Below the pieces are notes generated by a model, which saw only the letters and a list, made by a program, of their open reading frames with translations, ran no database searches and was not told where the DNA came from. Both the position numbers and the translations under genes were made by a program. A DNA stretch of 33,000 nucleotides, from positions 1 to 33,000 of the forward strand of contig JAFVMW010000077.1 in assembly GCA_017506735.1 (NCBI GenBank), given 5' to 3'. Below, in pieces: positions 26,307 to 33,000 of the stretch. The stretch comes from Oscillospiraceae bacterium (GTDB lineage Bacteria; Bacillota; Clostridia; Oscillospirales; Oscillospiraceae). How positions within the stretch are numbered: position 1 is the stretch's first letter; each line of letters starts with the position of its first letter.

Positions 26307-26332
26307 ACATTAAAATTTTGGAGGAATCTAAC

Positions 26333-27355
26333 ATGTCTGTTAAGGTTGCAATTAACGGTTTCGGTCGTATCGGCCGTCTGGCTTTCCGTCAGATGTTCGG
26401 CGCTGAGGGCTTCGAGGTTGTCGCTATCAACGACCTGACCTCTCCCAAGATGCTGGCTCACCTGCTGAAGTACGACACCACTCAGGGCGCTTACGCTCTG
26501 CCCTTCGGCACCCACACTGTCGAGGCCGGCGAGGACAACATCGTTGTCGACGGCAAGAAGATCACCATCTACGCCAAGGCCAACGCTGCTGAGCTGCCCT
26601 GGGGCGAGCTGGATGTCGATGTCGTTCTGGAGTGCACCGGCTTCTACACTTCCAAGGCTAAGGCTCAGGCTCACATCGACGCCGGCGCCAAGAAGGTCGT
26701 CATCTCCGCTCCCGCTGGCAACGACCTGCCCACCATCGTCTACAACGTCAACCATGAGTCCCTGACCAAGGAAGACAACATCATCTCCGCTGCTTCCTGC
26801 ACCACCAACTGCCTGGCTCCCATGGCTAAGGCTCTGAACGATCTGGCTCCCATCGAGGCCGGCATCATGTGCACCATCCACGCTTACACCGGCGACCAGA
26901 TGATCCTGGACGGCCCCCAGAGAAAGGGCGACCTGCGCCGTTCCCGTGCTGGCGCTTGCAACATCGTTCCCAACTCCACCGGCGCTGCCAAGGCCATCGG
27001 CCTGGTCATCCCCGAGCTGAACGGCAAGCTGATCGGCGCTGCACAGCGTGTTCCCACCCCCACCGGCTCCACCACCATGCTGAACGCTGTCGTGGCTAAG
27101 GAAGTCACCAAGGAAGAGATCAACGCTGCCATGAAGGCTGCTGCCACCGAGTCCTACGGCTACACCGAGGACGAGATCGTCTCCTCCGACATCATCGGCA
27201 TGACCTTCGGCTCCCTGTTCGACGCTACCCAGACCATGGTCAACAAGCTGCCCGACGGCAAGACCCAGGTTCAGGTCGTGTCCTGGTACGACAACGAGAA
27301 CTCCTACGTTTCTCAGATGGTCCGTACCATCAAGCACTTCTCCAAGCTCCTGTAA
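26333..27355 (+). CDS. gap: Glyceraldehyde-3-phosphate dehydrogenase, type I
   Basis: The 340-aa glycolytic enzyme oxidises glyceraldehyde-3-phosphate to 1,3-bisphosphoglycerate with NAD+. The N-terminal dinucleotide-binding motif is INGFGRIGR, the catalytic cysteine is Cys156 in AASCTTNC, and the C-terminal part has [20 protein letters not shown] stands 7 nt before ATG 26333, which I prefer to the TTG at 26318. Codon use is extreme (GCT, GTC, AAG, CTG), as in very highly expressed genes. It appears to be a single-gene unit with its own promoter and terminator; no pgk follows. Confidence 0.98.
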
Positions 27356-27473: not shown

Positions 27474-27532
27474 TTTTGTCTATGTTTTGTCGAAGTTTGT
27501 CTATTCACAACTACTATTATTCGAGCTATAAT
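27474..27532 (+). promoter_or_regulatory. Repeated promoter module, copy P1
   Basis: TTTTGTCTAT (27474-27483), 12 nt, TTTGTCTATTCA (27496-27507), 19 nt, TATAAT (27527-27532). The 9-mer TTTGTCTAT occurs twice without change, 21 bp apart. The -35 is weak (TTCACA, 17 nt from the -10). The same layout recurs at four more places. It points to putative small RNA 1. Confidence 0.75.
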
Positions 27533-27538
27533 ACTGAC

Positions 27539-27690
27539 AGATAAAAGAGATTTCAACAGGGTACCAAAGAAATCAGCGTTATTTCTGACAGCCCGACATA
27601 ATAATAGATTCTTCTTCTTTGTCATTCTCCTCTCCTTCTTTCCAAAGTACCCCGGATCGTTTTGATTCGGGGTACTTTGGTTGCTCTAAA
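27539..27690 (+). ncRNA. Putative small RNA 1 between gap and ppdK
   Basis: The predicted transcript starts about 7 nt after the P1 TATAAT and ends at a strong hairpin (27642-27680: CCAAAGTACCCCG with CGGGGTACTTTGG, extended inward to about 17 bp). It has a 5' stem-loop (AGAAAT/ATTTCT, 27568-27586), then an unpaired CU-rich tract from 27609 to 27643 containing TTGTCATT (27619-27626) and CTCCTCTCCTTCT (27627-27639, region), complementary to Shine-Dalgarno sequences. No start codon with a ribosome-binding site is present. The tail after the hairpin is weak (TTGCTCT). Sequence evidence only. Confidence 0.45.
27642..27680 (+). terminator. Hairpin ending putative small RNA 1
   Basis: The perfect 13-bp outer stem CCAAAGTACCCCG / CGGGGTACTTTGG continues inward through one G-T wobble and three more pairs to a GTTTT loop. 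Confidence 0.65.
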
Positions 27691-27762
27691 GGAAACAGGA
27701 CTGAAATATCTTGTGATATGGACGCAAGAGATGATTATTGTGATGCTATTAAAAATGGCGTG

Positions 27763-27821
27763 TTTTGTGTATATTGCAGCGCAGTTTGTTCATTCCATTG
27801 TTTGATCGAAACTGCTATAAT
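27763..27821 (+). promoter_or_regulatory. Repeated promoter module, copy P2
   Basis: TTTTGTGTAT (27763-27772), 12 nt, TTTGTTCATTCC (27785-27796), 19 nt, TATAAT (27816-27821). Spacing is identical to P1. It points to putative small RNA 2. Confidence 0.75.
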
Positions 27822-27827
27822 CAGGTC

Positions 27828-27960
27828 AGAAAGAAGCAAGTGTCTCAGAACCTGAAATTGATTTTATCCCCGTTATTGATACCCACCAATGCTTGTCATT
27901 GTCTCCTCTTCTGTTCAAACCCCTCCGGATCCGTACCAATCCGGAGGGGTTTGAATTTCT
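27828..27960 (+). ncRNA. Putative small RNA 2 between gap and ppdK
   Basis: The predicted transcript runs from about 7 nt after the P2 TATAAT to the hairpin at 27914-27955, which is followed by TTTCT. It shares with small RNA 1 the order TTGTCATT (27893-27900), CU-rich tract CTCCTCTTCT (27903-27912), then a CCCC-CCGGAT hairpin, but little else, so the two look like diverged paralogues. The open frame through it also runs across the hairpin and the next promoter and is probably fortuitous. Confidence 0.45.
27914..27955 (+). terminator. Terminator of putative small RNA 2
   Basis: The 17-bp perfect stem TTCAAACCCCTCCGGAT (27914-27930) / ATCCGGAGGGGTTTGAA (27939-27955) has an 8-nt loop and a T-rich continuation (TTTCT). 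Confidence 0.8.
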
Positions 27961-27993
27961 CTACACGATTTCTTCATATATATCGAAAAATCA

Positions 27994-28052
27994 TTTTGTG
28001 CATATGCTGGAAAAGATTGTTTATTCAAAAAAGACAGAAATCAAGTTATTAT
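27994..28052 (+). promoter_or_regulatory. Repeated promoter module, copy P3 (ppdK promoter)
   Basis: TTTTGTGCAT (27994-28003), 12 nt, ATTGTTTATTCA (28016-28027), 19 nt, TATTAT (28047-28052). It gives a leader of about 65 nt to ppdK. The -35 equivalent is TTCAAA. Confidence 0.75.
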
Positions 28053-28124
28053 TAAGGTGTTCAAGCAAGAGATAAAGCAACAAAAAAGATTTAAAAAGGG
28101 ATAAAACGAAAGGGGTAATTCAAG

Positions 28125-30755
<2,631 letters not shown>

Positions 30756-30763
30756 TTTCTATC

Positions 30764-30791
30764 AATCTCCCCGGCACAGTCCGGGGAGATT
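30764..30791 (+). terminator. Terminator-like hairpin after ppdK
   Basis: The 11-bp perfect stem AATCTCCCCGG (30764-30774) / CCGGGGAGATT (30781-30791) has a 6-nt loop. There is no T-run, and no promoter is visible before the next gene, so some readthrough into the acetyltransferase gene is likely. Confidence 0.65.
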
Positions 30792-30819
30792 CTGAATCAA
30801 GTATAGAAGGAGGAACTCC

Positions 30820-31470
30820 ATGCATTTATGTGACAGAATCAACAGCGGCATGCTGTTCTACGAACATGGGCATACCGATCCCATCGATATCCAGCAGGAA
30901 AGACAGCTCCAGGAGGAGCGGGATCACTGCAAGGAAGTGATGTTCGAATACAACAACACTCACCCGAGAGAGGATACACGCCGTCAGGCAATCATGAAAG
31001 GCATTCTGGGAAGCAGCGGTGAACGGTTTTTCTTCGAGCCTCCGGTACATATGTCCTACGGTAAGCATGTGCATATCGGAGAAAACTTCTATTCCAACTT
31101 CAATCTGGTACTGGTGGACGATGGTGAGATTATCATTGGGGATAAGGTTATGATCGGCCCCAATGTTACCCTCTGCACCACCGGACATCCGGTGCACCCT
31201 TTGTACCGGGAAATGGTTGCCCATTATTCACTGCCCATCCGGATCGGCAACAATGTCTGGATCGGTGCCCACAGCGTGGTGCTTCCGGGAGTTACGATTG
31301 GTGACAACGCGGTGATCGGTGCAGGCAGCATCGTGACCCGGGATATCCCTGCCAATACCGTGGCAGTAGGTAACCCTTGCCGGGTTATGCGCGAGATTAC
31401 AGATCGGGATAAGGAGTACTATTTCCGGGATTTGAAGGTAGATTATCCCTATACCCTCCGGTTGAAATAA
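30820..31470 (+). CDS. Sugar O-acetyltransferase (LacA/Maa-type hexapeptide-repeat protein)
   Basis: The 216-aa protein has an N-terminal helical maltose/galactoside acetyltransferase cap (about 1-65) and a left-handed beta-helix of hexapeptide repeats (for example IGDKVMIGPNVTL, IGNNVWIGAHSVVLPGVTIG). The catalytic His is His123 in TTGHPVHP. It should transfer acetyl from acetyl-CoA to a sugar hydroxyl; the physiological substrate of this family is seldom known. AAGGAGGAAC precedes the ATG. It lies 64 nt after ppdK with only a hairpin between, and has a terminator after it. Confidence 0.9.
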   Translation: MHLCDRINSGMLFYEHGHTDPIDIQQERQLQEERDHCKEVMFEYNNTHPREDTRRQAIMKGILGSSGERFFFEPPVHMSYGKHVHIGENFYSNFNLVLVDDGEIIIGDKVMIGPNVTLCTTGHPVHPLYREMVAHYSLPIRIGNNVWIGAHSVVLPGVTIGDNAVIGAGSIVTRDIPANTVAVGNPCRVMREITDRDKEYYFRDLKVDYPYTLRLK

Positions 31471-31481
31471 ATGCCATACAG

Positions 31482-31519
31482 TATATCTCGCACAGAAGGT
31501 ATATTTTGTGCGAGATATA
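31482..31519 (+). terminator. Terminator after the acetyltransferase gene
   Basis: The 13-bp stem TATATCTCGCACA (31482-31494) / TGTGCGAGATATA (31507-31519) is followed by TATTTCTTTCT. The right arm includes TTTTGTGCGA, which resembles the first half of the promoter module. Confidence 0.75.
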
Positions 31520-31602
31520 TATTTCTTTCTACATCAGAGAATTGATCCTCGCCCGCCAGATTTACGGGATATTCAGTATCATCGGTTATCTCTATATGAT
31601 TA

Positions 31603-31661
31603 TTTTGTGCATATTCAAGCACACTTCGTTTATTCAAATTGTAATTATTACATGATATAAT
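31603..31661 (+). promoter_or_regulatory. Repeated promoter module, copy P4 (ParB-like gene promoter)
   Basis: TTTTGTGCAT (31603-31612), 12 nt, TTCGTTTATTCA (31625-31636), 19 nt, TATAAT (31656-31661). It leaves a leader of about 70 nt to ATG 31738. TTCGTTTAT is the copy closest to the published LytTR half-site pattern. Confidence 0.75.
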
Positions 31662-31737
31662 GAGGCTAATCCGATAGTAAATGGGTAATATTTGAATATA
31701 TCGAAAAAATTGACGTATTATGATCGGGGAGGGCAAC

Positions 31738-32598
31738 ATGGGAAATTGCAGAGAAATCAGTGCGCAGTATCAGATTGCAAATGCTTTAGCGGCTCAGAGC
31801 CTTCAGAAGGATAAGAAGCAAATTTTGCCAGTGTGTCCTGCATCGGTGAATGCGCTTATGGATGACCGGTTGGTCTCGAATCGGGTGGATTTGGGGGAAT
31901 TAGTAATTCCTGTCAACCTGATTGTAGGCGTCGCCAAGACCAGTGATCAGGTGAATCATTACACCAGCGAGTTTCTTCCGATTCCTGCTCCCAACAGTAA
32001 ATTTGCAGAACGTTGGATGAGGATCTATGAAGTATTTTATCTTCACGAGGTAAACTCAAATGTGATAAAGTGCTATGAGTATCTGGGAAAGTTCTATGTT
32101 GCGGACGGATTAAAGCGCGTGAGCGTTGCAAAGTTTCTCAGCGTTTCGACTATGAGGGCGCAGGTAGTCCGGATCTTGCCGATCAGAACAGATACCAGGG
32201 AAGCGCAGCAGTATTTTGATTTCCTGTTCCAGTATCGGTTGACGCACCTATATCAGCTTCAGTTCACACAGCCGGGATTCTTTGAACAGTTTCAGTCCGC
32301 ACTGGGGAACGGTCCTTCCTACCTGTGGAGTGAAGGTGATAGATCTCGCTTCCTGATGCATTGGAATACCATTGAGGAGGCTTTCAGAAAGGCATATGGT
32401 GGATTATTGAGGCTTACAACTGCTGATGCATTGGTGGTGTTGATGCGGAAATATTCGTATGAACAGATCCTCCAAATGGAATCCTGGGTGCTTGCCCGTA
32501 TTTTCCAGGCTTCGTGGAAAGAACTGTACGCATTGAGTTTCCCAAATCTAGCAGTTGTTGGACTCAGGCAAGCAGTACCATATCCTCAGACTGCATAA
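31738..32598 (+). CDS. Orphan protein with a ParB/sulfiredoxin-like domain, function unknown
   Basis: The 286-aa protein has a middle part (about 52-150) resembling the ParB N-terminal/sulfiredoxin fold: VIPVNLIVGV, then YEYLGKFYVADGLKRVSVAKFL (about 113-134), where ADGLKRVSVA matches the ParB box-II pattern DGxxRxxA. No helix-turn-helix is obvious. The C-terminal half (150-286) is helical and Phe/Tyr/Leu-rich with no recognised motif. There is no parA or replication origin nearby, so chromosome partitioning is unlikely. ATG 31738 is chosen for GGGAGGG just upstream; the frame also has an ATG at 31720 without one. Codon use is more AT-rich than in the neighbours, suggesting different origin or low expression. 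P4 precedes it. Confidence 0.7.
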   Translation: MGNCREISAQYQIANALAAQSLQKDKKQILPVCPASVNALMDDRLVSNRVDLGELVIPVNLIVGVAKTSDQVNHYTSEFLPIPAPNSKFAERWMRIYEVFYLHEVNSNVIKCYEYLGKFYVADGLKRVSVAKFLSVSTMRAQVVRILPIRTDTREAQQYFDFLFQYRLTHLYQLQFTQPGFFEQFQSALGNGPSYLWSEGDRSRFLMHWNTIEEAFRKAYGGLLRLTTADALVVLMRKYSYEQILQMESWVLARIFQASWKELYALSFPNLAVVGLRQAVPYPQTA

Positions 32599-32608
32599 AC
32601 ATGTTATG

Positions 32609-32672
32609 AAGCATTCGGATGCCATTATATTTCTCCAACTTTTTAATATTTCAACCTTATCTCCGAATGCTT
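32609..32672 (+). terminator. Long-loop hairpin after the ParB-like gene
   Basis: AAGCATTCGGA (32609-32619) pairs perfectly with TCCGAATGCTT (32662-32672), followed by TTTATATA. The 42-nt loop is pyrimidine-rich and includes TTCTCC. It may be a terminator or part of a small structured RNA. Confidence 0.5.
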
Positions 32673-32680
32673 TTTATATA

Positions 32681-32706
32681 GCCCCGGTTCCTTCTGGAAT
32701 CGGGGC
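32681..32706 (+). terminator. Second terminator after the ParB-like gene
   Basis: GCCCCGGTTCC (32681-32691) / GGAATCGGGGC (32696-32706) forms an 11-bp stem with one G-T wobble and a TTCT loop, followed by AGTTTTG. Confidence 0.7.
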
Positions 32707-32735
32707 AGTTTTGTGCGAATAATCAATTTGTTCAA

Positions 32736-32794
32736 TTTTGTGTATATATCAACTCGCTTTTGAAATTCAAATAACTATGCTAAAAATATATAAT
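32736..32794 (+). promoter_or_regulatory. Repeated promoter module, copy P5
   Basis: TTTTGTGTAT (32736-32745), 12 nt, TTTTGAAATTCA (32758-32769), 19 nt, TATAAT (32789-32794). Extra related words lie just upstream (TTTTGTGCGA at 32709, TTTGTTCAA at 32727). The downstream half-site is the least conserved of the five. Nothing recognisable follows before 32988; the rest of the 402-bp gap is AT-rich. Confidence 0.65.
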
Positions 32795-32919
32795 ATTGCA
32801 AGAAGACTAAGAATTCAACAAACCCATAATGCATGAATCAATAAATACAAATATTAGTTACTCAAACTTCGCACCCTTAAAAAACAGAACAATTTGAAGA
32901 AACACACAAAATAAAAAGC

Positions 32920-32986
32920 GTGCAGACCTAATGTATGGTATAATGTAATCACCACAAAACACCAAACACATACACGAGGTCTGCAC
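32920..32986. repeat. Inverted decamers GTGCAGACCT / AGGTCTGCAC before the last start codon
   Basis: GTGCAGACCT (32920-32929) and AGGTCTGCAC (32977-32986) are perfect inverted copies 47 nt apart. A TATAAT lies between them (32939-32944). They may form a leader stem-loop masking the GAGG ribosome-binding site, or be an operator. A terminal repeat of an insertion sequence is also possible. Confidence 0.5.
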
Positions 32987-32987
32987 T

Positions 32988-33000
32988 ATGAACAGTATAG
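32988..33000 (+). CDS. Start of an unidentified gene cut by the window edge
   Basis: ATG at 32988 opens a frame reading Met-Asn-Ser-Ile before the sequence ends. GAGG (32976-32979) could be its ribosome-binding site, and TATAAT at 32939 its -10. Four codons do not allow identification; a transposase is one possibility given the inverted repeat and the AT-rich surroundings. Confidence 0.35.

What the first reader, a model, noticed from the sequence alone, without database searches (positions are those of the whole stretch)
27474..32794. Five promoters share one rigid composite architecture across the gap-ppdK-ParB-like region
P1 27474-27532, P2 27763-27821, P3 27994-28052, P4 31603-31661 and P5 32736-32794 all read TTTTGTSYAT, N12, TTTGTTTATTCA-like, N19, TATAAT with no spacing change (S/Y vary). 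In P1-P4 two TTTGTNYAT-like 9-mers lie 21 bp (two helical turns) apart, the second abutting a weak -35; P1 has the same 9-mer twice. Known: LytTR response regulators (AgrA, ComE) bind paired direct repeats of a GTT-centred 9-mer spaced 12-13 bp, and the spacing and the GTTNAT core fit. Inference: a regulon controlled by one direct-repeat-binding activator. I did not see this layout at the other promoters of the window.
Basis: partly seen in the sequence, partly recalled or inferred. Interest (0 to 1): 0.9.

Follow-up and report, generated by a model that had tools for sequence, protein, structure and literature searches.

The report
Sugar-regulator promoter set with small RNAs
A set of look-alike promoters beside two sugar-burning genes matches the control site that, in many related bacteria, lies next to the gene of an AraC-type regulator of milk-sugar genes, and here two of the promoters appear to make small RNAs rather than proteins.

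Summary
P1-P4 fit TTTTGTSYAT-N12-TTTGTTTATTCA-N19-TATAAT with 1-2 mismatches and no spacing change; at up to 3 mismatches nothing else in the 2.3-Mb assembly does. P5 keeps box 1, -35 and -10 but lacks the second box.

The LytTR reading is not supported. In 136 genomes of the genus the site tracks one AraC/XylS-family gene: strong sites in 9 genomes, the gene in 9, both in 7. In named genomes fetched by that protein, the core TTTTGTGCATGTTTTGTCTAAT (<=5 mismatches) lies upstream of the gene in 72 of 79 loci, always facing away from it, mostly towards a beta-galactosidase (lacZ) or sugar-transporter gene. Matrices from other species' operators rank P1, P3 and P4 as the three best places in the window.

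In the window's genome and two relatives the site has spread to other genes: together gap, ppdK, lacA-like, orf292. P1, P2 and sites beside gap in both relatives precede ~150-nt units with long hairpins and CUCC-rich stretches that look like small RNAs.

Main weakness: the araC gene was not found in the window's own assembly (81% complete). No binding, induction or RNA has been measured.

The parts
27474..27532 (+). P1: box1 27474-27483, middle box 27485-27495 (TTTTGTCGAAG), box3 27499-27506, -35 27504-27509, -10 27527-27532
   Evidence: first or second of the window with matrices from other species' operators
27539..27690 (+). putative small RNA 1: no frame of 10 or more codons with a Shine-Dalgarno motif; UUCUCCUCUCC at 27625-27635; 3' hairpin 27642-27680
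   Evidence: fold z -4.36; local alignment with the unit after gap in G142 (score 57, best of 60 shuffles 20) and the unit before gap in G055 (36 vs 21); coding check
27763..27821 (+). P2: boxes 1 and 3, -35 TTCCAT, -10 TATAAT; middle box not kept
   Evidence: not above shuffles with the foreign matrices
27828..27965 (+). putative small RNA 2: UCUCCUCU at 27902-27909; 3' hairpin about 27914-27955
   Evidence: fold z -3.87; weak local similarity to small RNA 1 (28 vs best of 60 shuffles 22)
27994..28052 (+). P3: presumed promoter of ppdK (TTCAAA-17-TATTAT)
28125..30755 (+). ppdK, pyruvate phosphate dikinase
   Evidence: Pfam PF01326, PF00391, PF02896
30820..31470 (+). lacA-like hexapeptide acetyltransferase (best NCBIfam match galactoside O-acetyltransferase, below its cut-off)
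   Evidence: Pfam Hexapep/Mac; NCBIfam PRK09527 256 bits, cut-off 347
31603..31661 (+). P4: presumed promoter of orf292 (TTCAAA-17-TATAAT)
31738..32598 (+). orf292, no Pfam or NCBIfam family; most relatives are longer proteins, one of which was shown to end in a PnrA/Bmp-like domain; ParB-like only by one weak PHROG match of a relative
32736..32794 (+). P5: box1, -35 TTCAAA and -10 TATAAT in register; box3 absent; target unknown (contig ends at 33000)
26318..27355 (+). gap, glyceraldehyde-3-phosphate dehydrogenase; in G142 and G055 it has such a site upstream, in the window none was found

Best explanation
P1-P4 (P5 less surely) are operator-promoters of the AraC/XylS-family regulator that, in relatives, sits beside the lacZ/sugar-transporter/gal genes. 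The regulator is thought to bind as two protomers on direct repeats 21 bp apart, the inner one against the -35, and to recruit RNA polymerase when a galactoside is present. In this species and two relatives the site was copied or evolved beside gap, ppdK, lacA-like and orf292 genes and in front of ~150-nt hairpin-ended units, so that sugar uptake, lower glycolysis and small RNAs with an anti-Shine-Dalgarno stretch would rise together. Shown by sequence: the sites, their layout, the link with the araC gene in relatives, the hairpin-ended units. Inferred: binding, galactoside response, activation, RNA function, and that the regulator acts in the window's own species.
For: A pattern taken from the window alone finds sites in 4 other genomes of 136, reversed control 0. 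Profile R1: sites at E<3e-5 in 9 of 136 genomes (six of the nine gave sites to R1, so G037, G139 and G143 are the new ones). AraC gene at E<1e-60 in 9 of 136; both in 7, Fisher p 8.6e-9. In the other two AraC genomes (G116, G028; the fetched loci are 100% identical, so one event) a weak R1 match lies beside the gene. Among 80 named loci fetched by the AraC protein the site upstream of araC is the best of the locus in 75. 72 of 79 hold a 22-nt core within 5 mismatches, all facing away from araC, against 3 of 1580 shuffles; the nearest divergent gene is lacZ in 47 (core in 45), a GPH-type transporter in 23 (20), neither in 9 (7). 18 other AraC loci of G000, G030 and G142 score at most 4.8. Matrices from other species' operators, window excluded, rank P1, P3, P4 as the top three, above 30 shuffles. 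Further sites precede a sugar transporter gene and galK or follow an epimerase (galE-like) gene. G055 and G142 have the sites at gap and the AraC gene in the same genome.
Against: No close AraC gene in G000 or G030, which both have sites (best 23% identity in G000; different recognition helices). G000's lacZ relative on contig C61 has no araC neighbour and no site. P2 and P5 are not above shuffles with the foreign matrices. Most satellite sites lack the middle box that is among the best conserved parts of the operators beside araC. Seven of 79 named loci do not hold the core within 5 mismatches. The hairpins after P1, P2 and in G055 were not called as terminators for want of a U tract. Nothing has been measured.
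Confidence: 0.73

Rival explanations
1. A LytTR response regulator (AgrA/ComE type) binds the paired 9-mers and controls the cluster.
For: Spacing of the 9-mers is 21 bp; LytTR domains are present in 10 of the 11 genomes searched, all with a strong site or the AraC gene, G000 included.
Against: G055 has three sites and no LytTR found (77% complete, so not decisive). No LytTR gene lies beside a site; the nearest are about 5.5 kb (G139) and 78 kb (G037) away, the others on other contigs. The site lies upstream of the AraC gene in 72 of 79 named loci. LytTR was not sought in site-free genomes.
Confidence: 0.08
2. A different AraC-family or other regulator, related in specificity, has taken over the satellite sites in the window's species; the AraC protein of the lac locus is truly absent there.
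For: No close AraC gene and no lac-type galK in G000 and G030; satellite sites differ in the middle box.
Against: G142 and G055 carry both site types and the AraC gene; P1 keeps the middle box; G000 is 81% complete, so the gene may be in the missing part; lac-type galK is also not found in G037 and G139, which do have the AraC gene, so its absence says little; none of the other AraC proteins of G000 shown has matching recognition helices.
Confidence: 0.17
3. The hairpins after P1 and P2 are attenuators or leftover hairpins in a long ppdK leader, so that P1-P3 are stacked ppdK promoters and there are no independent small RNAs.
For: P1, P2 and P3 all point at ppdK; the hairpin tails are poor in U.
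Against: In G142 the relative of RNA 1 ends in a hairpin followed by TTTTTA, and the next gene downstream is the convergent IMP dehydrogenase gene, so it leads into no gene; in G055 the related unit lies between the galE-like gene and the separate promoter of gap.
Confidence: 0.3

Closest known systems
BgaR-PbgaL lactose-inducible system of Clostridium perfringens (passages of PMC10312008; AraC-family membership of BgaR and the enzyme made by bgaL are recalled)
   Same: regulator gene paired with a beta-galactosidase gene in a Firmicute; there the regulator is switched by lactose
   Different: BgaR's sequence and operator were not compared here; here the site has spread to glycolytic genes and small-RNA-like units
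XylS/Pm and AraC/pBAD direct-repeat activation (XylS: passages of PMC5481539; AraC recalled)
   Same: two direct repeats, inner one near the -35; the XylS half-site begins with box A TGCA, which is also in TTTTGTGCAT of most operators beside araC
   Different: different ligands and sequence; the second box of the XylS half-site (GGTA) is not at the matching place
Predicted AraC-GPH-GH2 locus Eub-2 of Eubacterium rectale (PMC5320581, passages)
   Same: AraC regulator, GPH transporter and GH2 enzyme in one predicted locus
   Different: the passages seen describe no operator and no link to gap, ppdK or small RNAs
csRNAs of the CiaR regulon in streptococci and Spot 42 of enterobacteria (recalled)
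   Same: sibling small RNAs under one regulator with direct-repeat sites and an anti-Shine-Dalgarno stretch (csRNAs); a small RNA tied to galactose metabolism (Spot 42)
   Different: no sequence relation tested; no Rfam family reached its gathering score in the window

Membership tests
Operator of an AraC/XylS-family sugar regulator | Cognate regulator gene of the family beside the site in relatives | tested here: met
   PF12833/PF00165/PF02311 for the neighbour in G142; site upstream of its relatives in 72 of 79 named loci
Operator of an AraC/XylS-family sugar regulator | Two direct repeats about two turns apart with the inner one at the -35 | tested here: met
   21-bp spacing, box3 overlaps or abuts the -35 in P1-P4; not met for P5
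Operator of an AraC/XylS-family sugar regulator | Regulator gene present in the same genome | tested here: inconclusive
   Present in 7 of 9 strong-site genomes; not found in G000 or G030
Operator of an AraC/XylS-family sugar regulator | Protein binding and inducer response | not testable with these tools
   needs EMSA, footprint, expression data
LytTR response-regulator operator | LytTR protein in every site-bearing genome | tested here: inconclusive
   0 in G055 (77% complete), present in the other 10 of 11 searched
LytTR response-regulator operator | Site beside a LytTR gene | tested here: not met
   none of the seven window proteins scanned has a LytTR domain; LytTR matches lie on other contigs than the sites except in G037 and G139, about 78 and 5.5 kb away
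BgaR of C. perfringens | Sequence kinship to BgaR | not tested
   BgaR sequence not held; named-genome scans spent
BgaR of C. perfringens | Lactose response | not testable with these tools
   no expression data
Regulatory small RNA | Own promoter, terminator and no reading frame | tested here: inconclusive
   promoters; hairpins; no frame of 10 or more codons with a Shine-Dalgarno motif in 4 units; a terminator with U tract was called only in G142
Regulatory small RNA | Detected transcript and targets | not testable with these tools
   no RNA data

The most novel reading that the evidence does not exclude
A galactoside-responsive AraC-type activator in Gram-positive gut bacteria drives a pair of sibling anti-Shine-Dalgarno small RNAs together with gap, ppdK and the lac-gal genes: a sugar-specific small-RNA arm that could re-route translation when milk sugar or plant galactosides arrive, an activator-driven counterpart of Spot 42.
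Probability: 0.4. Interest if true: 0.65.

Novelty: new variant of a known kind. Interest (0 to 1): 0.5.

Why it matters
It turns an anonymous promoter repeat into a testable site: one operator shared by records titled Lachnospiraceae, Oscillospiraceae and other Clostridia, where the ten strain genomes searched have only one or two matches each, and three genomes of this genus in which it has spread to core glycolysis and to small-RNA-like units. That makes regulon expansion by a local sugar regulator directly visible and gives candidate small RNAs. No paper on this operator was met in the searches (open-licence papers only).

Tried and rejected
LytTR and a window-wide promoter class were rejected. 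Spo0A was considered because P1's middle box TTTTGTCGAAG resembles a recalled 0A box; it was set aside because box 1 across species is TTTTGTGCAT and the sites sit beside araC; no Spo0A search was made. Rfam gave no match at gathering score in the window. orf292 as the regulator: no DNA-binding family found. orf292 as query in named genomes: 9 stretches matched a pattern, none was confirmed. The small-RNA covariance model R2 had base pairs only in the terminator and was not searched with. A DNA search with small RNA 1 across 136 genomes found only itself and its inverted terminator arm in G000, plus short matches (22 and 28 bases) in G145 and G106; it does not see the G142 and G055 relatives, which rest. 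tblastn of the AraC protein in plasmids at E<=1e-30: none. An idea that a weak -10 goes with the middle box (4 of 4 lacZ sites in A2) was dropped as a rule: 44 of 72 named operators have a perfect TATAAT.

Circularity: R1 was built with sites of G000, G055, G142, G129, G019 and G030. In one search the matrix A2 held sites of G142, G129 and G019, which are also loci L118, L121 and L122. R3 held five window sites and operators of the ten strain genomes it was searched in. One of 80 loci (L131) was left out because its upstream part is cut off. A5 used 46 of the 71 distinct named operators plus five window sites; the matrices left the window sites out (46, 37 and 8 operators; the 46 include L118 = G142).

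Full report
WHAT IS THERE. Four places, P1-P4, match with 1-2 mismatches and identical spacing; 100 shuffles give none, and a search of the whole 2.3-Mb assembly finds no fifth place at up to 3 mismatches. P5 has box 1, -35 and -10 in register but not box 3. The core promoter is TTCACA, TTCCAT or TTCAAA, 17 bp, then TATAAT or TATTAT.

THE SITE IN RELATIVES. The same pattern in 136 genomes of the genus matches in five, G000 included, with no control match. A sequence-only profile, R1, of 17 sites from six of these genomes gives a clear gap: E below 3e-5 in 9 genomes (G142 9 sites, G000 5, G055 3, and one each in G129, G019, G037, G139, G143, G030), then nothing until 8e-4. G000's five all lie in this window. 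In G142 and G055 sites precede gap, lacZ and short hairpin-ended units; in G142 also two orf292 relatives, a lacA-like gene, a sugar transporter gene and a DUF624 gene. In G055 lacZ is followed by transporter, galK, galT and a galE-like epimerase gene, then the hairpin-ended unit, then gap. In the single-site genomes other than G030 the site lies between lacZ (GH2) and a divergent AraC-family gene.

THE REGULATOR. That AraC protein (HTH_18, HTH_AraC and AraC_binding domains) is found at E<1e-60 in 9 of 136 genomes. Seven are strong-site genomes. The other two (G116, G028; 51% identity) have loci that are 100% identical over 3.8 kb, so they count as one; a weak site (E 0.02-0.03) lies beside the gene. 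G000 and G030 have sites without the gene.

TEST IN NAMED GENOMES. An alignment of eight AraC proteins brought 80 named loci, by their titles mostly Lachnospiraceae and Oscillospiraceae. The site upstream of araC is the best of its locus in 75 of 80. Within 5 mismatches of TTTTGTGCATGTTTTGTCTAAT are 72 of 79, all facing away from araC, against 3 of 1580 shuffled regions. The nearest divergent gene is lacZ in 47 of 79 (core in 45), a GPH-type transporter in 23 (core in 20) and neither in 9 (core in 7). In the 72, a hexamer with at least 5 of 6 TATAAT letters lies at one fixed distance in 58 and one base further in 11. Box 3 is less conserved there (GTTTATGGA is commonest) than boxes 1 and 2. 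Matrices made from such operators, without the window's, rank P1, P3 and P4 as the three best places in the window, above 30 shuffled windows, also when only the 37 operators with AraC identity below about 66% are used; P2 and P5 are not above shuffles. Ten strain genomes have one or two matches each at E<=0.01, some of the second ones partial and weak, so the multi-site regulon of G000, G142 and G055 is the exception. In P. phocaeensis An507 a second, weaker site (E 0.001) follows a galE-like gene, as in G055.

TWO SITE TYPES. In the genus the four lacZ sites among the 17 have the middle box at 9-11 of 11 positions; the other 13 have 4-7, except P1 with 9. So the satellite sites rest on boxes 1 and 3. 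The lacZ sites have a -10 with one mismatch, and 11 of the 13 others a perfect TATAAT, but outside the genus 44 of 72 operators beside araC have a perfect TATAAT too (the 72 include a few of the genus), so no general trade-off follows.

THE SMALL RNAS. P1 and P2 are each followed by about 140-150 nt without a frame of 10 or more codons with a Shine-Dalgarno motif and with a strong hairpin (fold z -4.4 and -3.9). RNA 1 is related to the unit after gap in G142 (score 57 against at most 20 in 60 shuffles) and the one before gap in G055 (36 against 21); RNA 2 is related only weakly to RNA 1 (28 against 22). All four carry a CUCC-containing pyrimidine stretch just before the hairpin. In G142 the unit is followed by the convergent IMP dehydrogenase gene, so there it leads into no gene; its hairpin has a proper U tract, those of the window and of G055 were not called as terminators. 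Function and targets are unknown.

WHAT SPEAKS AGAINST. The window's own assembly lacks a close AraC gene (best match 23% identity; other recognition helices). It has only the galK copy that all nine genomes searched share (61-65% to the lac-type one); the lac-type galK is missing in G030, G037 and G139 as well, the last two with the AraC gene, so this is neutral. An 81% complete assembly may simply lack the AraC gene, but true loss is not excluded. The lacZ on contig C61 has neither araC nor site, and 12.8 kb of that contig is 99.99% identical to a G030 contig, so its owner is unsure.

VERDICT. Observation confirmed, activator-regulon idea supported, LytTR not supported. Most likely an AraC/XylS-type galactoside regulon that in a few species of this genus has taken in lower glycolysis and sibling small RNAs. 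New variant of a known kind.

Noticed in passing
L114 (G000:C61) and L115 (G030:C93): The two genomes share 12.8 kb at 99.99% identity around a lacZ gene, which suggests a cross-binned or recently shared contig.
   Followed up: partly
window 31738-32598; L008-L025: orf292 belongs to a family without Pfam or NCBIfam name; 53 of 99 genomes searched (own included) have a match, most in frames of about 650-720 aa; the one scanned whole ends in a PnrA/Bmp-like domain.
   Followed up: partly
L040 2805-4351 (G030:C139): Two neighbouring orf292 relatives, the first only matching the C-terminal half, and a lacA-like frame of 162 aa, shorter than the window's 216 aa.
   Followed up: no
window 32915-33000: A further promoter-like stretch (TATGGTATAATG) and a start codon near 32989 at the contig end, just after P5; it may be a mobile element that broke the assembly.
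   Followed up: no
L083 5080-5960 (G142:C41): A weaker site upstream of a DUF624 gene suggests further regulon members.
   Followed up: no
L139 6191, L151 6220, L216 about 1501: Second sites elsewhere in or beyond the araC loci of Lachnospiraceae, some not in front of an obvious lac gene.
   Followed up: no
L078 and L079 (G116, G028): Two genomes counted as separate species share a 3.8-kb araC locus at 100% identity.
   Followed up: no
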